Assembly (NCBI RefSeq): GCF_000701525.1
Contig: NZ_KL370789.1
Span: forward strand, 62,001-126,000
From: Mesoplasma grammopterae ATCC 49580
Lineage (GTDB): Bacteria; Bacillota_I; Bacilli_A; Mycoplasmatales; Mycoplasmataceae
Direction: 5' to 3'
Length of the DNA: 64,000 nucleotides
The position numbers and the translations under genes are program-made. The stretch's first letter is position 1, and each line of letters starts with the position of its first letter. Under the pieces are notes generated by a model. That model worked only from the letters and a program-made list of their open reading frames with translations, ran no database searches and had not been told where the DNA came from. This document shows, piece by piece, positions 38,936 to 60,089 of the stretch.

Positions 38936-40024
38936 ATGGAAAAAAAAATTAACAAAATATTATTTGGTGATTCTATTCAAGAAATGAAAAAAATGCCAGA
39001 AAAGGTATTTGATTTTATTTTTGCAGACCCTCCTTATTTCATGCAATTAGATTATAATAAAAAACTTTTAAGAGCTAATGGTGAAGAATTCAAAGGCGTT
39101 GATGATGATTGAGATAAATTTGAATCAATGGAAAAATATGAGAAATGAACTAAAGAATGAGTTAAAGAAGTCAAAAGAGTAATGAAAGATGAAGGTCTTT
39201 TTTGTGTTATTTCTGGAATGCAATCAATTTATGAAATAGGGAATATTCTTAAAAAAGAAGGTTTTTGAATAGTAAATGATATTATTTGATTAAAGTCTAA
39301 CCCAACTCCAAATTTCAAAGGCACAAGACTTAATAACAGTCATGAAACAATGTTACTTGTACAAAAAAGTAATAAGAATAAATTTACTTTTAACTACAAA
39401 ACAGGGAAATTTTTAAATAATAATAAGCAAATGGGTTCAGTTTGAAATATACCTATTTCTTCAGGAAACGAAAGGTTGAAAGATGAATTTGGCAAAAAAG
39501 TTCATAGCACTCAAAAACCTGAACTTCTTTTATACAGATTAATTACTATATTTACAAAAAAAGGTGATTTGATTTTAGACCCTTTTGGTGGAACAATGAC
39601 AACTGCTGCTGTTGCAAAAAAAACTGGAAGAAATTTTGTAACTATTGAAAGAGAGAAAAAATATATAAAATATGGTGAAAAAAGACTAGATTTAATTGAA
39701 CCAGAAATAAGTGATGTCACACAAAATACTTTTGATTTAAAACCATTAAAAGTTTCATTTGAACAATTAATTAATGAAGCATATTTATTTTTAAATGAAA
39801 ATATGTATGATTCTAAAGGAACTAAATGCTTTTCTTTAAAGGATAAAAAAGGAAAAGTTAGTTATAAAAATGAAATTTGGTCTATACATGAGGCAATTGG
39901 CAATTTTAAAGGCAAAAAAAACAGAATTAATGCATTTGAAAATGTTTTTGTTTTAAGACAAGGAAAACTTAAATCACTATATGAAATTAGGGAAGAATTT
40001 AGAAAAAAATATAACAAAAATTAA
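38936..40024 (+). CDS. Adenine-N6 DNA methyltransferase, HinfI/CcrM type
   Basis: A 362-residue beta-class methyltransferase, the same length as M.HinfI (about 359). The catalytic DPPY is at residues 31-34 in FADPPYFMQ. The segments GVDDDWDKFE, NPTPNFKGTRLNNSHETML, FTFNYKTGK and HSTQKPELLLYR follow M.HinfI closely, and the SAM-binding motif is DPFGGTMTT at 215-223, where M.HinfI and most others have DPFxGTGTT. Expected target: adenine of GANTC. A run of nine A (38940-38948) at codons 2-5 could slip. One tryptophan is TGG (about 39878), unlike the core genes. The C-terminal part resembles the extra domain of M.HinfI. Confidence 0.9.
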
Positions 40025-41032: not shown

Positions 41033-41074
41033 AAAATGTTAAAATAAAAATAGTATTGAAATATGGAGGCACTA

Positions 41075-43420
41075 ATGAATACAAAACTTTATTGTCCTAT
41101 TAGAGGATTATTAAACGTAGATGAAAAAGATAAAAGTGGTTTATCTTTTACTGAAGAGAGACAAAGAATTGAACTTGTTAAGTTTCTTTTAAATAAAAAA
41201 AAGTACCCTAAAGAGTTGTTTCAATTTGAATATATAATAAAAATAGGAACGTCTAATCAAAAATTAAGAGCAGATCTTGTTATATGAAAAGATGAAAAAA
41301 AAGAAAAAGTTGAAATAATAGCAGAAGTTAAAAAAAATGGAAAGCATAAGGAAAAGGCAGCTATTTTGCAATTAGAACCTGGTAAAAAGCTTTTAAATGC
41401 AAAATACGGAATTTATTTTGATGATGAAAACAATTATTTGCTTTACAATAACGATAAATACTCAATAACAAAATTACCTGATTATGGATTTGATTTTGAT
41501 TCAAAAAAAATAGCAATTAATGATTTAAGAGAAATTAATAATATAGATTCTCTTTATTCTAAGCTTGATCAACTAGCACATAATAAAGGTTTTTCAAAAG
41601 AAAAAAGATATGAAGGAATATTTCAAGTTATTTTAGCGAAATATTATGATGAAAAATATAATTCTAAAAATTTAAAATTTATTTCAAATAAAAACACTTT
41701 TAAAAATTTTACTGATTTGTACACTAAATCAATGCAATATTATAATATAAGTTCACAAATTGAATTGAATAGTCAAATTATTCTTTCAGAAGACGTAATA
41801 AATAAAATTGTAGAAGTACTTGAAGAGTATTCTTTTATGAAATCTGATATAGGAGTTATTCAAACATTTTTTATGAAATTTGGTGCTAATTTTTTAAAAA
41901 AAGATTTAGCACAATATTATACACCCATCCCTATAATAAAATTTATCGCTTCATTAATTGATGTTAAAAGTAATAATAGAATTATTGATCCAGCAGGTGG
42001 CAGCGGAGACTTTTTAGTTGGAATTTTAGAAAAATATAAAAATTCTGATACTTTTTCTTTAATTAAAGAAAATTTACATTATTGAGATTTAAGTGAAGAT
42101 GCTTTGAAAGTAGCTTTCATTAATATGGTATTGCATGGAGATGGAAGAACAAATATTGAACAATTAGATTCTATAGAAAGATTTGATTATAAAAATAACT
42201 CTTTCGATTATGTTATTACAAATCCGCCTTTTGGTTCAAAAACAAAATGAGATGGCTCAAATGAAATTATGAAACAATATAAAATTGTAGAAAATGAAAA
42301 AGCAAATAAGGAATTAGGAATTTTATTTATAGAAAGATCTATTAAATTACTTAAAGAAAATGGTATTTTAATAATTATTTTGCCTTCTGGTTATATGAAT
42401 AATAGTTCAATGAGTTTTATAAGAAATTATTGTTTAAAATATAGAATTATTGCTGATATTTCTCTTCCACCAGGAGCTTTTAAAGGTGCTGATACAGGAG
42501 TTAAAACTGATATTTTAATAATTAAAAAAGAAATTTTAGATAAAGATTATAAAATATTTGTAGAAGCTCCAAAAAAAATAGGTTTTGATTTTAAATCAAA
42601 TAAATTATCAATAATGTATAAAAGAGATGAAAAAACTGGATCATTTTTATATGATGATCAAAATGATAAAATAATTGATTCTGATTTGACAGAAATTGAA
42701 AATAAGTTTAAAAAATTTACGTATGATAATTCAATTAAAGGCTTCGAACAGAAAAATAATGATGTAGAGTATAGCACAGTATTAAAATCACAAATAGTTA
42801 ATGATGCTTTTTTAACCTTAAAACCTGAACTTTATCTTAATAATTATGTAAAATTAATTGAAGACATAAATCAAAAAGGTGCAGTTAGTTTAAAAGAATT
42901 AAAACAACAAAATAAATGTAAAATAGTTATAACTAATTCAAAAAGCATAGAATTAGTGGATGAAAAAGAATATACCTATATAAGTATTTCGGAATCTAAA
43001 AAAGGGTATTATTCACTTGAAAACAAAATGAGAAGCTGAGAAATTTCTCAAATTGATAGAGCTAAACAAAAAGCAGAAGAAAATGATATATTTATTAGTT
43101 ATTTATACGGTAGCAAAGATAAATTTTTTATAATGACTGAAAAAGATGCTGATAATATTGTAGTTACTAATGGAATGTATAAAATTAAAATTGATGATGA
43201 AAGGATAAGATTGTCATTTTATATTTTTTTATTTACTGAATATTTTTCAAAACAGTTTGAAGCATTTGCAACAGGCCATATCCAAACAAACATAAATATA
43301 GATAAAGTATGAGAATTTAAATTCAATATATTAAATGATGAAGAATTTGAGGCTGCTAAAAAAATGCTTAAGTCTCAAATTGAATGAAAAAACAATTATA
43401 ATGAATTTAATAACTTTTAG
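41075..43420 (+). CDS. Single-chain restriction-modification enzyme (type IIG-like, with HsdR_N nuclease, N6-adenine methyltransferase and specificity region)
   Basis: One 781-residue polypeptide with three parts. Residues 1-130: a nuclease domain of the HsdR_N kind, with Asp67 (LRADLVIW) and Glu84-x-Lys86 (IIAEVKK). Residues about 260-530: a gamma-class N6-adenine methyltransferase as in HsdM, with YYTPIPIIKFIASL, the SAM motif DPAGGSGDFLVGI near 304 and catalytic NPPF at 383-386. The rest (about 560-781) looks like a single target-recognition domain plus a helix (FEAFATGHIQTNINIDKVWEF is typical of HsdS-like ends). I chose ATG 41075 over 41063 because GGAGG lies at 41065-41069. The target sequence is unknown. 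Confidence 0.85.
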
Positions 43421-44888: not shown

Positions 44889-44992
44889 AAGCAAATTATA
44901 AAAACTGTATTTTTTCAAGCAACTATTTATATTTTTTTAAGTCACTACACCTTAGTTATTGATTTTCTAGTTAAAAATAAAAAAATTTTTTT

Positions 44993-45022
44993 AAAAAACA
45001 CCCAATACTGGGTGTTTTTTTT
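44993..45022 (+). terminator. Strong terminator before the repeat-protein locus
   Basis: A stem AAAAAACACCCA/TGGGTGTTTTTT with a 4-base loop and a T tract. It isolates the J-domain/membrane pair from the next locus. The 260-base gap 44889-45149 contains this terminator, the poly-A promoter and no gene. Confidence 0.88.
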
Positions 45023-45052
45023 GTTTTTATCAAACTTTAGTGTGATTTTATC

Positions 45053-45080
45053 TTGACAAAAAAAAAAAAAAAACCATAAT
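45053..45080 (+). promoter_or_regulatory. Promoter with a 16-A spacer, candidate phase-variable
   Basis: TTGACA at 45053-45058 and CATAAT at 45075-45080, separated by 16 bases that are almost all A: the unbroken A run covers 45058-45073. One more A would give a 17-base spacer. It lies upstream of the exported repeat-protein genes. A homopolymer between -35 and -10 is the architecture of slippage switches in mycoplasma surface genes such as vlp of M. hyorhinis. A leader of about 60 bases follows before the TTG start at 45150. Confidence 0.65.
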
Positions 45081-45149
45081 TAGATTATTCACAAAACTTA
45101 AGTTTTTACACTTTATCGTTTTGATTTTTAAAAGAAAGGTGGAGTCTCT

Positions 45150-46424
45150 TTGAAAAAAAATAAAAGAAAAATATTAGCATCTTTTATTATTCTTTTATTA
45201 ATAGTTGTATGATCTCTTTTTTTAGGAATTATGATTGTGAACGGTGGTGAAAATTCATCTTCAAAAAAAATAATTAGTTTTCAAGAAGTTAAAACTGATG
45301 TTGATAAATATACAAATGATAATACATTTTATGATTTTAAGAGTTACCAAGATGGCCTAAATGATTTAAATCTAGAAGGCGTTAATTTAACAGCATATCA
45401 AATATTATTAGAAAATAAACAATCTTCAGAATTAACTACATTAAGAGTAGAAGTTATTTTTAAATTAGAAGAAAACTATAAATGAAAAGAACTTATATCA
45501 GGTGATCAAAAAGTTGAATATCAAGTTGTTATTGATAAAAGACAGATAGTTAATAAGCAAGAGTTATTTGATTATGTACAAAACAGCCTAAATGAACAAG
45601 AATATTTATCTCAAGAAGAGTTGAATGTAAGATTTGAATATATAAAACAAGATTATGAAAAAAAATACCCTGATATTAAACTAGATTTAAGTACAAATAC
45701 AAATATTAATGGTGAAAATAAAACAAAATGAACAATTGATATTGAAGCATCTATTGATTTCAATCTATATAAATGAAATGATGGCGTTGAAGAAAAGTTT
45801 ATTATGAAAGAAATTAAAATTACAAAGGATATAAGTAAATTGGTTTATCAAGAAGAAATCAAAAAAGAATTAAACGAGATCATAGAAAAAATTAACACTA
45901 ACTCAATTAAAAACTATTCAATTAATGAAGTCATTCAAGAAGTCGATCAAAATTATTTTAAAAGTGCTAATGAAAAACTAAAAGGAACTTATATATTAAA
46001 CCAAACTGCAGAATATCAGCAACAAACTGAAGACGGTTTTAATATATACACATTAAAGATAAAAATAGGTTTAAATGATGGATATAAATGAGAACATGAC
46101 AGAAGTAAAGAAGTTAAGGAATTCAGTTTTCAAAACATTAAAATTAATACGAAAATAATTGATTTAAATCAAGTAATTGATGATTTAAAAGTATTAACAT
46201 CAATGAAATTTCAAAATACTAGTGAGTTAGAGGAAAAGATTGAAGAAATATCTAAATCAAGTAAAGGTTATAATTTAGATCTTATTAATAAAGATGAAAC
46301 AATGAAAGTAAACTTTATAGCAAATTTACAAATAAGTTTAAATGAAGATTATGTATGAAATGATCAAGAAAACACAAACGAGAATATAACTATTAAATTA
46401 GTTATTAATAAAATAGAAAAATAG
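45150..46424 (+). CDS. Exported/membrane-anchored repeat protein 1 of a tandem family
   Basis: A 424-residue protein with an N-terminal membrane anchor (LASFIILLLIVVWSLFLGIMI, about residues 9-29) and a long extracytoplasmic part. Four related units of about 90 residues follow, each ending in a hydrophobic strand and an aromatic-Trp pair such as NYKW, YKWND, GYKWEH or DYVWND. The start is TTG at 45150, in frame and behind AAAGGTGGAG; a downstream ATG at 45231 would remove the membrane anchor. All conserved tryptophans are TGA. No lipobox cysteine. The function is unknown; surface or secreted location is inferred. Confidence 0.7.
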
Positions 46425-46431
46425 GTAGAAA

Positions 46432-48033
46432 ATGAAAAAATTATTATCACTTTTGTCTGGTATAGGAATCGCTTCAAGTGGTTCTGTTTTAACAGCAAAC
46501 ACAATTAATATAAAACAAATCAATAATGAAAATGTTGAAATTATTGAAGATTTAAATGAAGGGCAAACAGGCCCAGAAATTAATGTTAATACAATCAAGG
46601 TTTCTGATGCAATCAGTAAAATTAAGCAAACGGCCGAAAAACAAACATATGTTTCAATTAATGAAGCAATTGAAGCAATTCAAAAAGAAACATTAGTTGG
46701 AACAGAAGTTAGCTTAGAAAAAAGCGAATATATTGTTAGAGAAGAAAATAAAATTAATGGACTTGTTCACTTAAATCTTGCATTAACTTTAAAAAAAGAT
46801 TATACATGAGATAACGAAAGTTTAGAGAGCACACTCTATGTTTCTACTATAGCAAAAATTGATGAAAGAATTAATGTAGATAAAAATGAGGTATTAGCTA
46901 AATTTAAAGAATTATGAAGTACAATTCCTGAGGGAGAAGGAAAAGTTGAACACAAGAAATACTTTAAATCAAAAAATGAAGCTTTATTAGAAATTTTACA
47001 AACAGAATTTGAATATGGTCAAGTAACTAATGCAATCATAAAATCAGCCTCAAATGATGAAGGAAAAGTTATTAATGATGATATTGAGTTTGAAGTAGAA
47101 GTTTTGTTAGATAAAAATCATAAATGATTAAATGAAGTTGAAGGAGAAAAAACTATGAATTTGAATACTTTCAATTTTTATTTAAAAATTGATGAACGAA
47201 AAGAGGCATCATTTAACGAATTAAATACTGATATTATTAATGAATTAGGGAAAAATAATATAAAGTTTTATTCAGAACAAGAAGCTTTAGATGCAATTGA
47301 GCAATATAAAACAGAAAGCAATATAGAATCAATTAAAGATGGTGGAGTTTCTTTAGTTGTAAAAGAAAACGATATATCTTCACAAATACATTCAATTTAT
47401 GATAAAGAATTTATTATTGAAGCAAAAATTGATGAAAAAATTTACAAATGATCTGATGAGACAATTCTAACAAAAGAAATTAATCTACTAACATTGATTG
47501 ATTCAAGAATTCAAGTTAAACAAAATTTAGTTGAAAATCAATTGAAAGACGCAGTCGAAAGTAAAGTTTTTGCATCACAAGGTGAATTAGTGCAAGCAAT
47601 ACTTGATACATCTCTTGAGGAAGGAGCAACTGTTTTAAATATTAAAATTAATGTTGTTGATGATGAAACAAATATTCAAGTTATTGTTGCTATAGATGGT
47701 GAATATAGATGAGACATCAAAGACGATAGTAATGAACCACTAACATTTGAAATTAAATCTAAGGTATATGATAATCGTGTAGACTTTTCAGAAGCAGCGA
47801 AATCATTGTCAAACACATTTAAAACAGAAAGTTTTGCTAATAAAGAAGAAATCGAAGCTTTTGTTGAACATCAAAAAGTAAATGGTATTGATATTGAATT
47901 TGTTGACGCTAATGGGAGTCAAGAAAAAGGATGAATTATCAACTTAATATTAACACCAAATAAAAATATGACTTGAAGCGATGGAACCAATTCATCTCAA
48001 AAATTAATGGTAACTGCTAAAGCTGCAAAATAA
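46432..48033 (+). CDS. Exported repeat protein 2
   Basis: A 533-residue protein with a signal peptide-like start MKKLLSLLSGIGIASSGSVL but no lipobox cysteine. At least five units follow that end in DYTWDN, NHKWLN, IYKWSDET, EYRWDI and NMTWSDGT. Many units begin with an ID-x-R element (KIDERINV, KIDERKEA, LIDSRIQV). The start is 7 bases after the stop of repeat protein 1, so the two are co-transcribed. A terminator follows. Similar to repeat proteins 1 and 3; unknown function. Confidence 0.8.
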
Positions 48034-48034
48034 T

Positions 48035-48057
48035 CTAAATGCAAATTTAGTTTTTTG
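48035..48057 (+). terminator. Terminator after repeat protein 2
   Basis: A 6-bp stem CTAAAT/ATTTAG with a GCAA loop and six T. The A+T-rich stem is weak and may allow read-through into repeat protein 3. Confidence 0.6.
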
Positions 48058-48128
48058 CACTGATTAGAAATAAATAAAATTTTAATTTCAACATACGAAA
48101 AATCAATAGAAAGTAAAGGTTAAAAATT

Positions 48129-50639
48129 ATGAAAAAATTATTATCGATTATGTCTATCCTTTTTGTGGGAACTACCGGTTCTATATATCCTCTTATTGTG
48201 CAAAATCAAGTAGAAAAACAAAATAGCATAAAGCAAATTAATATACTAAAATTAAGCAATGTTAGAGAAAATCTTGAAGATCAATTAAAAGATAAAACTT
48301 TTTCAAGTAGTAGTGAAGTTATAGACATAATAGCAAAAAATTCTATTGATGGTTTGCAGTATAAAGCTTCATTGAACAATACTCAAACAAATCACAAACA
48401 AAATTATGAAGTTTTTAATGTGGAAATTACAATTACTGATGAAAATAAATTTAAATGAGATAATAATAAATCAAATACGATATTATTAACAGTTACAGCT
48501 TTCATTGATTCGCGTCAAATTATTGACCATGATGCTATTCAAAAGTCACTAGACGAAAACTTTTCATTTAAAACTTACAATTCATCATTTGACTCTAAAT
48601 TTGAATTATTAACAAATAATGAAATTCAAGAAGGAGTTAATATTATTTATATTAATCCTGAAGAAAAAATTATTAATCCAAATAATAAAAAATTATATCA
48701 AATTGATTATCAAGTAAATGTAGACTTAGATTCAACAAAAAAATGAGCAGAAAATGATAATGGTACTAATTTTAGTGTTTCTTCTTATATTGACGAACGC
48801 AATTACATTGATTTTTCAGAAATTCAAAAACAAATAAATGACGTTGTTGAAAATAATTATTTTTTATCTACACAAGCAGTTAAAGAAGCAGTTAATGAAA
48901 TTAATATTAACTCAGCTGTAGAAATTAAAAACTTAACAGAAGTATTCCCTGATAATAAAATAGCTACTAAAGAAGTTGAATTTAGTTATGATTTAGTCTT
49001 GAAAGACAGCGAAAACTCAAAATGAAAAGATGGAACTATTAATAATATTCCTAATACTTTTAAGGCTAAAGTAGAAAATAGAAAAATCTTAGATTATGAA
49101 GCTGTTCAAACAGCAATAAGTAATACATTAAAAGATAATACTTATACTTCTGTAGAAGAAGCTGAAAAAACAATTAGAAATGTTCAAATACCTAGCGAAA
49201 TAAGCATTTCAAAAATTGAATCTTCTACTTCAACGATTTTTGGGTCAGTTGAATTCGTAATTGAATTAAAAATTAATGATACAGAAAATAATAAGTGAAA
49301 AGATGAAACAGTTACAAATAAAAAAATTAGTGTTTCAGCAAATATTGATGGAAGAAAGCAAATTGATTTTGAAACCGCAAGCTCACAAATTAATCAAACT
49401 GTTGCTGGAAAAATTTTTAAATCAATGACAAATGCTGAAGCAGCAATAGCTGAAGCTAACCTTGAAGAAGGAATTGAAATATCATCGATAATACCTAAAA
49501 GTACAACAATTTATGGAAATGTTGAATACACAGTAGAAATTAAAATAGATGACAAATTATTTAAATGAAGCGATGGAACAACTGAAGATAAAGCCTTGGA
49601 GGTTTTAGCAGAAATTGATGGAAGAACAATTGTAAAATTTGAAAGTGTGCAAACTTTAATTAATAAAGCTAATGATAATAAAACTTTTAAATCCGTTGAT
49701 GAGGCAATTAATACTATTGAAGAATTGAAAATGCCAAAAGAAGTTATTATTTCTTCTGTAACATCATCATCTGAAGTAAAAGTGGGTACAGCTGAAATCG
49801 AAATTGTTATAGACTTGAAGGATGCTAGTTTATCAAAATGAAGTGATGAAACAGTTACAGCTAAAACAATGAAAATTAATTCTAAAATTGATTCACGTAT
49901 TAAATTATCAACAGATTTAATAACAAAAGAATTAGGCTACTTTGCATTTAAACAAGAAACAAATGAAATAGATATATTAAATCAAATGTTAAAATTAAAT
50001 GCTTCATTAAAAATTGAAGAATTAAGTGTTTCAAATATTACTAACAGTTCAGCAACTATTAAGGTTAAAGAAGGATCTTATGAATACTTCTCAGAAACAA
50101 CAACTGTGAATTTTGAAAGAGACGTACGTATTGATATTAAAGAACATGTTAAAGTTAAAGATCTTGGAACATTTAACACAACAAAAAATAATTTAAATGC
50201 AACTATAAAAGATAAAATTAAAAGTTTAAATAAAGACATAAATATGTCAGAAATTGAACAAATAAGTTCAAATATAGTTATTGAGACAGGGCCAAGTAAA
50301 GTTGTTTGAAAGGTTAAAGATAATTCAAAGGTATATTTTGATCAATCAACAATTGAATTTACTTTTACAATTAAACGTCAGGCACTTAAAGACCCAAATA
50401 CAAGTTATACTCGTGCAAAACTTTATATTGAATATATGAGAGATCCTGATCTAGCAAAATCTCAATTAAAAGCATTCTATAGAAATTATGAGTGGGATGA
50501 TATTGAAATGGTTCAGTTTACTGAAACAAGTTATTCTAGCGAAAATATGCGAACTGAAGGATATTGATCAATTAAAGCAAAATCTGATTCATATTATTAC
50601 ACAGGTCAAGCTATAGTTTATGTTTATTCATCACAATAA
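48129..50639 (+). CDS. Exported repeat protein 3, the largest of the family
   Basis: An 836-residue protein with a signal peptide-like MKKLLSIMSILFVGTTGSIYP (no lipobox cysteine). Seven or more units follow; the best conserved ones, between about residues 380 and 590, contain ANIDGRKQIDF, LAEIDGRTIVKF and SKIDSRIKLS, then a helix with KxF(K)S-x2-EA-x2-I, and end in FKWSDGT, LSKWSDET or NKWKDET. The last 150 residues differ and contain a Tyr/Ser-rich end. One TGG tryptophan occurs (about 50493), while the unit tryptophans are TGA. The ribosome binding site is AAAGGTT. It may share the upstream promoter or use a box in 48060-48120. Confidence 0.8.
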
Positions 50640-50679
50640 AATTTATTCAATTTAATCTTTTTTATAATTTTCTAATTAA

Positions 50680-50716
50680 AAGGTATCTTACTTTTCAAAG
50701 TAAGATACCTTATTTT
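50680..50716 (+). terminator. Very long hairpin terminator after the repeat-protein locus
   Basis: A perfect 15-bp stem AAGGTATCTTACTTT/AAAGTAAGATACCTT with a 2-base turn (so the top pairs will open), followed by ATTTT. It is the longest perfect hairpin in the window. Confidence 0.8.
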
Positions 50717-52500: not shown

Positions 52501-55494
52501 ATGAAAGATAAATTATTGCAAGATTTGCTATTAAATATTAATACTATTGATAATGTTGAATTTAAAGAACAAGCTAAAAATAAGAGTGATAAATGACTTA
52601 TAAATCAATTTCAAAATGTTTTGGAAAAAAAATTAAGTTCTTTTAATTCATTTAATCAGAAGCTTGAATTTATTAATGGTTTATTATCTAATGAGGAAAA
52701 ATTTACAGAATTTACTAATAAAAATAAAACTAAAAATAACATAAATTGTAATCTAAGTCTTAATGAACTAGTTGTTTCGTTTAAAGATTTTATTGAAGAA
52801 GAATTTTTAAATGCTAATAAGGTACTAATTATTTCTCCTTTTATAAGTTCGTTTATGGTAAATAAACTAAGAAATTGACTAACAAACAATAAAAATTTAA
52901 AAGTTAAAATAATAACTACAACTTTTGATGGTTCATCAAGATTTCTTTCATTAGAAACATTAGTTTATTTAGAAAAAGATTTTAAGGAAAGAATAGAGAT
53001 TAGAATTGAGAATTCTTTTAAAAATAATGGCTCAAGAATTCATATGAAAGCATATTGTTTTTTAAGAGAAGGCGGATTTAGTAATTTATACATTGGATCA
53101 AACAATTTTACAAGAACTGGAATAATGATAGGAAATGAATATTCAATAAAAATTAGTGAATTTAGGGAAAAAGAAATATTTAATAACTTTATTTTAGAGT
53201 TCAATCAATTATGAAAACAAGAATTAATTGATATAAATAATTATGAAGTTGTAAATAAAATGATATTGTCACAAATTTTTATTGATGAAATAAATAGAGA
53301 AAAAGAAAAAGAACAAACTGAAATAATTAATAATTTATCAAATAAGAAAAATAAATTGGAATTGTTTAATTATCAAAAGGACGTTATTGAAGTTATTAAT
53401 CAAAGGGAAAAAAAGGGAATTAATAAACACTTAATAGTAATGGCTACAGGAACTGGAAAAACAATAACAATTGCTAAGTATTTTGAAGAATTATTTTATA
53501 AAACGTCTAAACCTTTAAAGATTTTATTTTTAGCCCACCAAAAGGAAATTTTAGAACAAGGAATATCAACTTTTGAAAAAGTTATTCCAGGTTTTAAAAA
53601 TCAAGTTTGTGAGTTTTATGATCAAAAAAGTAAAATAGAAGACTTAAAACTAAAAAATTATATTTTTGCCACTTTTCAAAGTTTACTTAAAAATTTAAAC
53701 TTCATACAAAATTATAATTTTGATTTAGTTATTTTAGATGAAGTACATCATATTGAAGCGAAAAGTTATCAAAAAGTTTTTGATTTAGTTTCTTCAAATA
53801 CAAAAACTCTGATTGGATTAACAGCGACCCCACAAAGAACAGAAGGAATAGATATTAATAAATATTTCAATTATGAGTATGCATATGAATTGAGTTTATA
53901 TAATGCATTGTCAAATGATTTGCTTGCTCCATTTGATTATTACTTTATTCAAGATAAAACAGTTGATTTAACTGGTATTGATTTAAATAAAATAGAAAAA
54001 TTAAGTGAAATATTAAGCTCTGAACAAAGAAATAAATTTGTTTTAGAAAACATTAAAAAAATGATAGGAATAAATAATCGTGATACTTCAACGGTTCTAT
54101 TTTGTTCGTCTATTGAGCATGCAAATAAATTAAAAAAATTCCTGTGTGAAAATAATTTAAGATGTGAAACATTAACTAGTGAAAATAATAGAATTGAACG
54201 AGAAAATATAATTAAAAAATTTAAAAATAAAGAAATAAATTATTTATGTGTAAGGGATATATTAAATGAAGGGGTTGATGTGCCTAACATTGATAGAATA
54301 GTATTTTTAAGACCAACAAATTCATTGCTTATCTACTTGCAACAATTGGGAAGAGGTTTAAGAAAAACACCAGATAAAAAATTACAAATTTATGATTTTG
54401 TAAATAATGTTGATTTGTATGTTAACAAGCAATATGATCCATTTTTATTGTATAAAGCATTTAGAAAAGAAACAAATATTAAAATTAGTGAATTAATAAA
54501 TAATAATTTTAAAATTGGTTCTTTTTTACCAGCAGGGTCAGAACTATACATAGATTATTTAACTCGAAATGATTTAATTGAAAAAATTAGAAAGTATGAA
54601 TCAAATAAAAAAATAGATAATATAATTCTTGAATATTCTAAAGAATTAAGCTATGAAAATTACAAAAAAATGTTTATTGAAAATCAAATAAGAAATAACT
54701 TTACTCCATTTAAAATTTATTCGAAAGGTAAAACATTTATAAAGAGTAATTTTGATTTTGCAAAAGTTTTATCAAGAATGTCAATTAATAATAATAAACA
54801 AATTATAAGTAGATGAACTAAAATAGTAAAAACAAAAGAAATAAATTTAAATAATTTGGAAGATAAATTATTTATGGCAAATTTTTGTAATAATAAAATA
54901 ACAATGAATAATAAAGAATTTGAAAAAAACCTTTTAAAATATTGAGAGTTCATAAAAACTAGAACAACTGTCTTTGAAGAATTACTTTATTTATTTCAAT
55001 TTAAAATTGAATCTGAAACACTAATTGATAATGATATAGAAAATTACGAGTTATTAAGCATTGAATATTTAAAAGATATGTATGTTACTTATGACCAAAT
55101 TTATGTTCTTCTAAATAATGGAATAGAAAAAAATGAATTTAAAAAGAATTCATCTGTTCAAGGCATATTTAAGGCTTCTGAATCAAAATATGTAATATCA
55201 GCATCTTCTTTAACTCAAGAAAAAGAGCATAAGCATGCTAATTATTTTTCTGACAAAAATAAAGAATTAATTTGAGAATCACCTGATTCATGAAAATATG
55301 AAGATAAGGAAAAGATTGATTTAATATTAAATAAGTATTATGTTTTTTATCAATCACAAGAAACTGTTGAATTATTTGATGAAACTATTAGAAAATACAT
55401 AGGTAATGTTAAGTCTATTGAACTAAGAGAATCAATAACTAATAATAAAGAGAATAAGAAAGAAAAAATTAGATATAAATTTAAAATTTCATAA
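52501..55494 (+). CDS. PLD-nuclease/SF2 helicase fusion protein (DUF3427-type)
   Basis: A 997-residue protein. Residues about 80-250 form a phospholipase-D-type nuclease domain with His181-x-Lys183 (RIHMKAYCF) and Asn201 in YIGSNNFTRTG. Residues about 280-620 form a superfamily 2 helicase: Walker A MATGTGKTI with Lys320, DEVHH at 413-417, LTATPQRTEG, and QQLGRGLRKTPDK near 615. The 370-residue C-terminus occupies the place of DUF3427. This architecture is often found in restriction and phage-defence loci. A cytosine methyltransferase gene follows in the same direction. The ribosome binding site is GATGGTGA. Tryptophans are TGA. Confidence 0.85.
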
Positions 55495-55509: not shown

Positions 55510-55536
55510 TTGCAAAAAAAAAAAAAAAAGATAGAA
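55510..55536 (+). promoter_or_regulatory. Promoter with a 15-A spacer before the cytosine methyltransferase, candidate phase-variable
   Basis: A -35-like TTGCAA (55510-55515) and TAGAAT (55531-55536), one mismatch from TATAAT, are separated by 15 bases. The unbroken A run covers 55514-55528. Two extra A would give the 17-base optimum. It lies in the 68-base gap between the PLD-helicase stop and the methyltransferase ATG, so it would drive the methyltransferase and the genes behind it. Confidence 0.6.
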
Positions 55537-55562
55537 TCTTTCTTAGATGGGAAGATTTTTTT

Positions 55563-56933
55563 ATGCAAAAAATTAAAGTTTTCGAAACATTTTCGGGTAT
55601 AGGAGCTCAACATAAAGCTCTTGAAATTTTAAAAAGTAATCATATTCTTGATTATGAAGTAGTTGCCACAAGTGAATGAGATATTTGAGCTAATATATCT
55701 TATAATGCAATTCATTATAATAATCTTAATGTTGCTGTAAATTTAACAAATGATGAATTAGATTCTTTTTTATTAAAATTTACACATTCAAATGATTCTA
55801 AAAGTCCAATGTCCAGACAACAAGTTCTAAATTTGCCTCGCTTAGTTAAAGAGAACTTATATAGTTCTATTAAAAATTCCAATAATTTAGGAAGTATTAC
55901 TGAAATAAAAGCTGATGCCTTAATTAAAAGTATAGATAATTTTGATTTACTTACTTATTCTTTCCCATGTCAAGACTTATCAACTGCTGGAAGTTTTCAT
56001 GGAAATAATAAAGGAATGAAAAAAAATAGTGGCACAAGATCTGGATTATTATGAGAGATTGAAAGGATACTTAAAGAATTAAAGAAAATTAATCGATTAC
56101 CAAAATACTTATTATTGGAAAACGTTAATAATATGCTCTCTGAAAGACATAAAGATGACTATATAGATTGATTGAACTTTCTAAATACAATAGGTTACAA
56201 TACTCAAACTTATGCACTAGAAGCAAATGAATATGGAACTCCTCAAAACAGGAAAAGAATTTTTGCCTTTAGCGTTAGAAAAAATTTAACTAACGATTTT
56301 AAAGATACTTTTCGTGAGAGTAAAGGTCAAATAATTAAAGAAATTAATACTCCTATTGACGTAAGCAAAAAAATGAATATTAGAAAAGATATATTTGAAG
56401 TTCTTAAAGAAAACTATTCTATTAAAAAATACAAAGATGAGGCAATGAAAGCTACTCCTAATAAAACAAGAAGCAGAAAAAAGATGTTTGAAAATAATAA
56501 AATGCTTTCAACTAAGGTTGACACCAACATAAATAAACATAAAAATAAAACTTTTATAAAAGATGACAAAACTTATAGTAAATTTTCCTCAACAATTACA
56601 ACCAAGCAAGATAGAGATCCTAACGGAGGAGTTATAAACTTAAAAAAAACTGTTTTACAAGATAAATTTAATGACAAAATGAACATTCAAAAAGCTAACT
56701 TCAGACTTTTAACGCCAAGAGAATGTTTTTTATTAATGGGTTTTGAAGAAAAAGACTTTCAAAAAATTTTAGATATTTCAAATAAAATAAATCTTTCTCA
56801 TATGAAGAAAAATAAATATTTAGGTGAGGCAGTTTTATATAGACAAAGCGGCAATAGTATAGTTGTTAATGTTTTAGTCGCCATATTTAATAAAATTGCA
56901 GAAATCGAGGAGAAGCTCAAAAATGAAAACTAA
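55563..56933 (+). CDS. DNA cytosine-5 methyltransferase, M.SssI-like
   Basis: A 456-residue C5 methyltransferase. Motif I is VFETFSGIGAQHKALE, the catalytic Cys136 is in YSFPCQDLSTAG, motif VI LLLENVNNML, motif VIII TPQNRKRIF, and motif X YRQSGNSIVVNVL. The blocks FSGIGAQ-KALE, NFDLLTYSFPCQDLS, KGMKKNSGTRSGLLWEIER and LPKYLLLENV closely follow M.SssI of Spiroplasma, the CpG methyltransferase (386 residues). The variable region between motifs VIII and IX (about residues 240-375) is larger and different, so the target may not be CG. Expression may be switched by the A15 promoter. The ribosome binding site is weak (GGGAAG). Confidence 0.92.
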
Positions 56934-57575: not shown

Positions 57576-60089
57576 ATGGAAGTCAATTTATTTAAAAAAT
57601 TTTATGATTACTTATCACCACAAGAAAGATTAGATTTAAAAATTATTGAAACAAAAATATCAAGTGAGCAAGATGAAATTGCCAATAATATTTCAATTGA
57701 AGTATCTAAGATATTAGAATCAAAAATGAATCGAATTTTAGAAGAGAATCAAATTTATCTATCTATATATGAAAAAACTTCAAAGGTAATTTTTGATAAA
57801 ATTTGCTATTTGTATTCAGAAGAAAAAAAGCTTGAATCAGGTTATAGAAAAAATACTCAAATACCTAAGATAATATTCTCAACTTTTTATTATATAAGAA
57901 ATTGAAGAAATGATGAGGGTCATCCAAGCGAGATAGGAATTAAAAGAAGTTTTGCGGATACAATTCACTTAGTTAAGTGTTTTGATTTAGTATTATCATT
58001 TTTAATTAATTTTTTTAATGATTCAGACTTTATGATAGATGATTTTGATGAAGATTTTCTTTTAAAAATTTTAAATCAACGCAAACATTTTATAGATGAA
58101 ATAATCGATGAAAATAAAAAAGCAGATGTAGGATCTATTAAACTTGGAAAAATAGATATAAGTTCGTTTGTACTTAATCCTGAAATAAATTTCTTTATAC
58201 CATCTTATCAAAGAAAATATAGATGAGATTCAGAGACTTGTAAAGAACTAGTAAATGGAATACTAAAAAAAGCAAACAGTATTGATGATGAATATTTTGG
58301 AACAATTGCTGTAACAATTGAAGAAAATACAAGAAATAATGATGTTAGAACAGTCAGATTAATAGATGGACAACAAAGAGTAACAACATCACTTATTATT
58401 TTTAGAGTAATTTTTGATTTATGAAAAGAAAAACAATTAAACTCTTATGAAGAAAATATTTTAGAAATGCCAAATGAATTACAAGAAACCTTTGTTAACG
58501 TAGGTTGTTCTAATAAATATAAAAATGTAACAGGAAATCAAGTTGAAAATAAATCAATAGATTTTATTTTAAATGAAAATTTATCTTATAATGAAAGAAA
58601 AACGAAAATAACAAATTTTGAAACAATCGGTAAATCACAAGTTGCTAAAAATTATTTTGCCATTCATGATATGTTGGTTTCATTGTCTCAAGATGAATTA
58701 AGTTCTTTCTATCAAAGATATGCATACAAATTTTTAATTTCATGTGTTGATTTTAATAAAACTCCTGCCGAAGAAATGGAAATATTTGAAACATTAAATT
58801 CAAAAGGCACTGAATTAGATTCTTTTGATATGATTAAAAACTTTTTATTTAATCTAGTAGATAAAGATATTTTTTTAGAAAAAGAAGAAGAAATTACAAA
58901 AATATTTAATGAATATATCAGCTTTGATGATTTAAAAATTGAAGAAGATAAAAAAAGAAAAGTTCAAGAAGCATTTTTATTTAGTTATTGTGAATATAAA
59001 TTATTAGAGTTTAAACAATCAGATAATAATTTAAGCAAAAATAAAAAGTCAATTTTAAAACATTTTAAAAAAATATATGAAACTAAAAATAATATTGATG
59101 TAGATGAATTTAAAAAAATAGTTTCAGAAATTGGAAAATATGTTCTTTTAGCTAAATCATTTGAGTCAAAAAATTATGAAAATAATACGTATGATTTATT
59201 ATTTCCATTAAGATATAACATTGCAAATATTGCACATAAGGATATTTCTTTATTTATAATCTTTTATATAATTGATGTTTTTGCAAAAAATAAATGAGAT
59301 TCTTATAGTAAAACAATAAATTATAAACATAAATTAGAATTAATGAAAAATACCTTATTTGAATTTGAAAAATGAATAATTTCATTATTGCAAGTCTCAG
59401 GAACTGGTCAATCATTAACGAAACCAATTTTAAGATTATTTAGATTTTTAAATTTCTTTGATACCTCTAATCGTGCTATACAAGAACAAATTCCAAACAT
59501 GATAAAAAAATGATTATCAATGGAAGAAGAAAATTCATTTACATTTCAAAGTAAAGAACAAAAAAAATTATTACTTGAAAATATTGATTTAAAAATTCCT
59601 ACAAGTGAACAGCTATATAATTCTTTAATAAGCAAAAAAGTTCAAGATAAAAATATAGCAATGGTTTTACTAAAAAGATTAGAAAGTAAATTAATTAATA
59701 ATTGAGAAATAAAACGAGACAAAAATTCATTAGAACATATTATGCCAAAAACAATTAAAAAAACAAAATGAATAGATTATTTAAAAGATAATAACTTACA
59801 ATTAAATGATAAAGAAATTTTTGATAAACATGCAGAATATATAGATAAGATAGGAAATTATTTAATACTTGACAAAAATAAGGAAAATTCTAAATTATCA
59901 AATGCTGAATTTAGTTTAAAAAGAATGGATTTTGAAAAATGAAATAATCCATTGTGTACATTGATTTTTAATTTTAGCAGTAACGCCAATTTGTTAACAA
60001 CAGAAAAATTTGGATTTAAAGAAATTGATGAAAGATCAAAAGCTATTTCAAAAATCATAGTTGAAGAAATTTATTTTAAAAACAATTAA
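57576..60089 (+). CDS. GmrSD-like protein (DUF262 + DUF1524)
   Basis: An 837-residue protein. After an N-terminal helical part of about 200 residues, a DUF262 domain shows PSYQRKYRW (209-217) and LIDGQQRVTT (DGQQR at 264-268), the nucleotide-binding ParB-like site of GmrS. Near the C-terminus is a DUF1524 HNH-type nuclease: LEHIMPKTIKK with His721, then IGNYLILDKNKENSKLSNAEF. GmrSD enzymes are type IV, modification-dependent restriction systems that cut DNA with modified cytosines. The N-terminal extension is not part of the standard enzyme. It lies 11 bases after the unknown gene, behind AAAGGAG. Confidence 0.87.

What the first reader, a model, noticed from the sequence alone, without database searches (positions are those of the whole stretch)
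45053..45152. Poly-A promoter switch ahead of a tandem family of exported repeat proteins
TTGACA and CATAAT are separated by 16 bases that are almost entirely A (unbroken run of 16 A, 45058-45073), upstream of three genes for exported repeat proteins. In Mycoplasma hyorhinis the vlp surface genes are switched by length changes of a poly-A tract next to the -10 box; the same layout here, before surface-type proteins, suggests a slippage switch. A 17-base spacer, one A longer, would be the more active form. Sequence observation is direct; switching is inference.
Basis: partly seen in the sequence, partly recalled or inferred. Interest (0 to 1): 0.82.

Follow-up and report, generated by a model that had tools for sequence, protein, structure and literature searches.

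The report
Conserved poly-A promoter of surface-protein operon
A run of 16 A's sits exactly between the two recognition boxes of a promoter for exported repeat proteins in a small wall-less bacterium, and the same run in the same place in two relatives makes it a likely on/off switch driven by copying slips.

Summary
45053-45080 reads TTGACA, a 16-base spacer of 15 A and one C, then CATAAT (unbroken run of 16 A). It lies between an upstream terminator and three co-directional genes for exported proteins built of ~90-residue repeats. Orthologous operons (33-38% identity) occur in 2 of 59 other family genomes, one in another genus. Both carry TTGAC-A16 in the same place; CTTGAC-A16 is the longest invariant block of an otherwise diverged leader. 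Spacers to the best -10 differ (16, 15, 18).

The genome has no A/T run of 11-14 bases but 12 of 15-19: the tract belongs to a distinct long class. Most of that class are terminator tails; this one has no hairpin. In another family (G152), eight near-identical TTGAC-A(n) promoters of tandem lipoprotein genes carry 14, 15, 15, 16, 16, 17, 19 and 21 A, so this layout does change length.

A second such promoter in the window (55510) precedes a cytosine-5 DNA methyltransferase gene; 13 of 20 orthologs examined have it, spacers 15-19.

Best reading: a slippage-tuned promoter, working like Mycoplasma hyorhinis vlp switches but driving one operon of non-lipobox proteins. Switching was not observed; no reads or strains were available.

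The parts
44993..45020 (+). Intrinsic terminator of the upstream gene; separates the promoter from upstream transcription
   Evidence: 12-pair stem, 4 GC pairs, T-rich tail
45053..45058 (+). -35 box TTGACA (consensus)
   Evidence: read directly; conserved in G001 and G007
45058..45073 (+). Run of 16 A; 15 of them fill the promoter spacer
   Evidence: conserved as A16 in both orthologous loci
45075..45080 (+). -10 box CATAAT (5 of 6), spacer 16, no TGN extension
45086..45088 (+). Expected transcription start (inferred from position of the -10 box)
   Evidence: inference only; no transcript data
45135..45144 (+). Ribosome-binding site AAAGGTGGAG
   Evidence: read directly
45150..46424 (+). Gene A: 424-aa protein with N-terminal membrane anchor and repeat units, TTG start, code 4
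   Evidence: orthologs in G001 and G007
46432..48033 (+). Gene B: 533-aa exported repeat protein, no lipobox cysteine
   Evidence: orthologs
48129..50639 (+). Gene C: 836-aa exported protein with about six repeat units
   Evidence: orthologs
50680..50711 (+). Intrinsic terminator after gene C; end of the inferred operon
   Evidence: 14-pair stem
55510..55537 (+). Second poly-A promoter: TTGCAA (55510-55515), A16 (55514-55529), TAGAAT (55532-55537), spacer 16
   Evidence: same layout before 13 of 20 examined methyltransferase orthologs
55533..55559 (+). Inverted repeat between the -10 box and the start codon of the methyltransferase gene
   Evidence: RNA fold -9.4 kcal/mol, z -4.4
55563..56933 (+). 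DNA cytosine-5 methyltransferase gene under the second poly-A promoter
   Evidence: PF00145 E 7.7e-53; best solved relative 4dkj

Best explanation
A sigma-A promoter whose -35 to -10 spacer is a slippable run of 16 A. When the polymerase slips during replication the run gains or loses an A, the two boxes move one base pair apart or together and rotate relative to each other, and transcription of the three-gene operon rises or falls. Cells of one clone would therefore differ in whether they coat themselves with this set of repeat proteins. Shown: boxes, tract, operon layout, conservation at orthologous loci, and tract-length variation of this same layout in a related family. Inferred: that this tract slips in the population, that spacer 16 is a weak state and 17 the strong one, and that the proteins are surface-exposed.
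For: (1) Same TTGAC-A16 promoter before the orthologous operon in G001 and G007, where proteins are 33-38% identical and the leader is otherwise diverged; CTTGAC-A16 gives 22 invariant columns. It is the only TTGAC-A11 site of G001 and one of two in G007; the other in G007 precedes a gene for a repeat protein with Spiralin domains. (2) Snapshots differ in spacing to the best -10: 16, 15, 18. (3) The tract is in the long, discrete class, absent at 11-14. (4) In G152, 8 promoters with closely similar flanks carry 14, 15, 15, 16, 16, 17, 19 and 21 A; 18 of 20 pairs with at least 90% flank identity differ in tract length. (5) Of 122 TTGNN-A13+ sites in the family, 35 have a good -10 at spacing 15-19 against 16, 8, 11, 8 and 16 at shifted offsets; spacings are flat, 9/6/7/7/6 for 15-19, and 0 of 36 such -10 boxes have the TGN extension. 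In M. florum most promoters have -10 plus TGN and no conserved -35 (PMC7745072, passages), so these promoters should depend on the -35 and hence on spacing. (6) No hairpin next to the tract, so it is not a terminator tail.
Against: No read-level or strain-level variation could be examined. All three orthologous tracts are 16 A, as are most non-promoter tracts in the genome, so the constancy may reflect one favoured length rather than switching; an assembly reports only the commonest length. The G001 and G007 -10 boxes match only 4 of 6. The family-wide -10 excess (35 of 122) includes roughly 12 expected by chance. Slippage in G152 is between paralogs of another family, not at this locus.
Confidence: 0.74

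Rival explanations
1. A constitutive or supercoiling-sensitive promoter in which the A-tract is a fixed structural element (bent, stiff DNA) that helps RNA polymerase; its length is not meant to vary.
For: Tract length is 16 in all three orthologous loci and in 9 of 13 methyltransferase promoters.
Against: A fixed structural spacer should hold the optimal spacing; observed spacings to the -10 run from 15 to 19 in the methyltransferase promoters and the wider set. The near-identical G152 promoters differ in tract length.
Confidence: 0.15
2. The run is a by-product of slippage dynamics: any A run that passes about ten bases expands to about 16, and this one happens to lie in a promoter without being selected for switching.
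For: Runs of 15-19 with none of 11-14 occur genome-wide, 8 of 12 next to terminator hairpins; the same in G002, G003 and G004.
Against: By chance the tract would not be kept at the same promoter position in two other species while the rest of the leader diverged; TTGAC-A11 exceeds its reversed control 13 to 2. Even if true, the tract would still slip and still change the spacing.
Confidence: 0.08
3. The A run is the U-tract of an intrinsic terminator on the opposite strand.
For: This is what most long A/T runs in this genome are (8 of 12).
Against: No stable hairpin beside this tract on either strand (-0.9 and -1.8 kcal/mol), and no gene reads towards it from the right: all three genes run left to right.
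Confidence: 0.02

Closest known systems
Mycoplasma hyorhinis vlp genes
   Same: Homopolymeric A tract in the promoter region, indels there switch transcription ON and OFF; surface proteins with repeats (PMC10502178, passages).
   Different: There each gene has its own tract and encodes a lipoprotein; here one tract serves a three-gene operon whose proteins have no cysteine.
Mycoplasma mycoides vmm
   Same: Slippage inside the promoter spacer changes transcription of a surface protein (PMC10502178, passages).
   Different: Dinucleotide repeats, single lipoprotein gene.
Neisseria meningitidis nspA promoter
   Same: One A more or less upstream of the -10 box changes transcript level (PMC6389960, passages).
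   Different: Tract of 5-6 A, no -35 box, so a spacing mechanism is ruled out there.
Phase-variable CpG methyltransferase of Mycoplasma agalactiae
   Same: Cytosine-5 methyltransferase subject to homopolymer slippage (PMC9465063, passages); compare the second promoter in this window.
   Different: There the tract is poly(G) inside the coding region and acts by frameshift; here it is poly(A) in the promoter.

Membership tests
vlp-type promoter switch | Homopolymeric A tract between the promoter boxes | tested here: met
   conserved at orthologous loci
vlp-type promoter switch | Tract length changes in a clonal population | not testable with these tools
   one assembled genome per species, no reads; variation seen only between G152 paralogs
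vlp-type promoter switch | Tract length sets transcription | not testable with these tools
   no expression data
vlp gene family | Several single genes, each with its own tract | tested here: not met
   one homopolymer of 9 or more A or T in 44901-50700; A-B gap 7 nt, B-C gap 95 nt
vlp gene family | Lipoprotein signal with lipobox cysteine | tested here: not met
   no cysteine in any of the three window proteins
Spiralin-domain lipoproteins (PF05215) | Spiralin domain | tested here: not met
   no Pfam match for the three proteins; profile comparison of repeat units with six Spiralin-type units: hhalign probability 0.3 on its percent scale
Repeat domain of known fold | Clear match to a solved structure | tested here: inconclusive
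   model pLDDT 95; no Foldseek match at E<=0.001; best VIA Z 6.9, rmsd 3.0, 81 aligned, a level common for unrelated folds
CpG-type cytosine-5 methyltransferase (second locus) | Cytosine-5 methyltransferase domain | tested here: met
   PF00145 and TIGR00675 above their cut-offs
CpG-type cytosine-5 methyltransferase (second locus) | Methylates CG | not testable with these tools
   indirect only: nearest solved relative 4dkj, CG observed/expected 0.41 in the window

The most novel reading that the evidence does not exclude
Bacteria of this family share a promoter-switch system built on poly-A spacers of about 16 bases. It stochastically sets two things in each cell: the exported protein coat (this operon, Spiralin-type lipoproteins elsewhere) and DNA cytosine methylation (the methyltransferase at 55563 and its orthologs in four genera), together with some transporters. 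The sharply favoured tract length would be a stable slippage equilibrium that keeps many promoters poised one step either side of the best spacing.
Probability: 0.4. Interest if true: 0.82.

Novelty: new variant of a known kind. Interest (0 to 1): 0.64.

Why it matters
Promoter slippage switches are known from mycoplasmas of animals. Here the same design appears in a small-genome bacterium that looks like an insect- or plant-associated Mesoplasma (inferred; no call names it), where evasion of antibodies would not be the reason to switch. The design is conserved across genera at two unrelated kinds of gene, a surface-protein operon and a DNA methyltransferase, which points to a general, predictable way in which these regulator-poor bacteria diversify clones. 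If switching at the methyltransferase is real, methylation state would vary from cell to cell. Searches of the held library for Mesoplasma or Entomoplasma with phase variation, slippage or antigenic variation listed no report of it by title and start of abstract; that library lacks most subscription journals.

Tried and rejected
Rejected as a terminator tail: no hairpin beside the tract. Rejected as extra support: homologous operons in G014 and G021 have a T15/T16 run upstream, but it directly follows a hairpin-like sequence and reads as a terminator tail (by eye). Rejected: Spiralin homology of the repeats. The structure model of the repeat unit gave no clear fold match. TTG followed by any two bases and A13 is only weakly above its reversed control (123 against 89, my sum of the rows); only the TTGAC form is clearly enriched. 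Several A16 sites in that set are not promoters of host genes: about seven lie beside copies of an IS-like gene in G079 and about five in a repeated element of G036 (by eye). An earlier count said 14 methyltransferase orthologs; the correct count is 13 of 20. One search lists 123 places; 122 contexts were read.

Full report
What is there. The window lies in an 807-kb genome of eight contigs that reads TGA as Trp (inferred from the open frames). No call names the organism; by size, code and base composition it resembles Mesoplasma (inference). At 45053 the sequence reads TTGACA, then 15 A and a C, then CATAAT; the unbroken A run is 45058-45073, 16 bases. A terminator hairpin at 44993-45020 precedes it and another at 50680-50711 follows the third gene. 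Between lie three co-directional genes, A (45150-46424), B (46432-48033) and C (48129-50639). Gaps are 7 and 95 nt; in G001 and G007 the same genes almost touch, with one extra gene in G001, which supports an operon. Protein A has a strong N-terminal hydrophobic segment; B and C have weaker signal-like N-termini; none has a cysteine. All three are built from units of about 90 residues with one invariant Trp; 12 units were aligned. The unit is predicted at pLDDT 95 as a small alpha/beta domain without a clear match among solved structures. Pfam, PHROGs and NCBIfam have no confident match to the three proteins.

Is the tract more than chance? The window has two A runs of 16 and no A or T run between 10 and 15. 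Genome-wide the 76 placements of A11 are exactly those expected from 12 runs of lengths 15 (1), 16 (8), 17 (2) and 19 (1), so runs of 11-14 are absent. A geometric fit to lengths 4-8 of the window predicts about 24 runs of 11-14 and 0.5 of 15 or more. The full listings of G002, G003 and G004 show the same: 4, 11 and 7 runs, all 15-17 (the listings of G001, G005 and G006 were cut). Folding the 45 bases beside each of the 12 tracts shows 8 beside a hairpin on the T strand (terminator tails); the tract at 45058 has none. The tract at 55514 has a hairpin on the gene's strand but only a weak one on the T strand. Two others are undecided.

Conservation. Protein A has matches in 3 of 60 genomes searched, one of them the window's own; the others are G001 (same genus, 35% identity) and G007 (another genus, two pieces of 34 and 32%). 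A profile of protein B finds matches in 11 of the 60 family genomes. Full-length matches are the window's own, G001 and G007. G014 and G021 hold more distant expanded copies, and G006 two fragments with stops; the rest are short or repeat-only matches. Upstream of the operon in G001 and G007 stands TTGAC-A16. In the three-way alignment CTTGAC-A16 is an unbroken invariant block of 22 columns while the rest of the leader is diverged. G001 has one TTGAC-A11 site in its genome and it is this one; G007 has two, the other before a gene for a repeat protein with Spiralin domains. The best -10 boxes are CATAAT at spacing 16, TAGTAT at 15 and TAAGAT at 18. In the decayed G006 locus (14 kb read) no A or T run of 11 or more remains.

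The same layout elsewhere. TTGAC-A11 occurs 13 times in 60 family genomes against 2 for the reversed control, and in 12 of 158 order genomes. In G152, of another family, 11 sites stand in tandem, nearly all directly before genes for repeat-rich lipoproteins. Eight have closely similar flanks and carry 14, 15, 15, 16, 16, 17, 19 and 21 A; of 20 pairs with at least 90% flank identity, 18 differ in tract length. This is direct sequence evidence that a TTGAC-A(n) promoter changes in length while its flanks stay put. Two neighbouring lipoprotein genes in G103 carry A13 and A14.

The wider set. Of 122 TTGNN-A13+ contexts read in the family, 35 have a -10 of at least 5 of 6 at spacing 15-19; at five shifted offsets the counts are 16, 8, 11, 8 and 16. 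The 35 spacings are flat: 9, 6, 7, 7, 6 for 15 to 19. None of 36 such boxes has a TGN extension. In M. florum 422 mapped starts show -10 TAWAAT with a partial TGN extension and no clear -35 (PMC7745072, passages only). The poly-A promoters are thus the opposite type, with a good -35 and no extension, and should be sensitive to spacing (inference).

The second promoter in the window. At 55510 TTGCAA, A16 and TAGAAT (spacing 16) precede a cytosine-5 methyltransferase gene (55563-56933). A GmrSD-type endonuclease gene follows at 57576-60089. The methyltransferase has relatives in 27 of 60 family genomes. Of 20 loci fetched (the best-scoring ones), 13, in four genera, have TTG, a run of 16-18 A and an AT-rich -10 candidate right upstream. 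Six have no such tract and one has a T16. Tract lengths are 16 in nine, 17 in two and 18 in two. Spacings are 15 in five, 16 in three, 17 in two, 18 in two and 19 in one (and by hand for L083); three of these -10 boxes match only 3 or 4 of 6. An inverted repeat lies between -10 and start codon in most (13 leaders folded, z from -0.1 to -4.6). Since the expected start site falls inside it, I read it as a possible operator rather than an RNA hairpin (inference). The hairpin followed by T's could also end the upstream gene, so this locus is good but not unambiguous support.

Mechanism. Shown: promoter anatomy, operon layout, conservation of the tract at the promoter across genera, absence of intermediate run lengths, and length change of the same layout between paralogs in G152. 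Inferred: slippage at this tract in the population, a change in transcription with spacing, and that 17 is the strong form. [quoted passage not shown] In N. [quoted passage not shown]

Against this reading. All three orthologous tracts are 16 long. The same length is favoured at terminators, so it need not reflect promoter function. No reads or strains could be examined. The -10 boxes of G001 and G007 are poor.

Verdict. It works like a vlp switch; it is not a vlp family member by gene organisation or protein type.

Noticed in passing
55510-55563: Second poly-A promoter (TTGC-A16-GATAGAAT) before a cytosine-5 methyltransferase gene; the layout precedes 13 of 20 examined orthologs in four genera.
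   Followed up: yes
55533-55559: Inverted repeat between -10 and start codon of the methyltransferase gene; similar repeats with different sequence at most orthologs that have the poly-A tract, possibly an operator.
   Followed up: partly
whole genome G000; G002, G003, G004: A/T runs of 11-14 are absent while runs of 15-19 exist (34 runs in four genomes, mostly 16): an unexplained, sharply favoured length. In G000 all 12 runs are followed by G or C on the A strand.
   Followed up: partly
L222-L224 (G152): Tandem array of repeat-rich lipoprotein genes with 11 TTGAC-A(n) promoters of different tract length: a vlp-like system in another family, species not named here.
   Followed up: partly
57576-60089: GmrSD-type endonuclease gene two genes after the methyltransferase; the whole set may share the poly-A promoter.
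   Followed up: no
L161 (G072): Poly-A promoter (TTGC-A17, spacing 17, TACAAT) before a PAPS-reductase-domain gene resembling DndC of DNA phosphorothioation (name recalled, not tested).
   Followed up: no
L022 (G000 contig C1:48588-48606): A19 tract before a membrane-protein gene whose protein looks similar by eye to one behind a poly-A promoter in G072 (L166); no clear -35 here.
   Followed up: partly
window 1-64000: CG dinucleotide observed/expected 0.41 against GC 1.32, as expected if CG is or was methylated.
   Followed up: no
L118, L121, L171, L176, L074: A related large membrane protein stands behind a TTGA-type poly-A promoter in five genomes of genus g11 (by eye).
   Followed up: no
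41063-43420: N6 adenine methylase fused to an HSDR_N-type domain, near further restriction-modification-like genes (38936-40024, 52501-55494): a dense cluster of DNA-modification genes around the operon.
   Followed up: no
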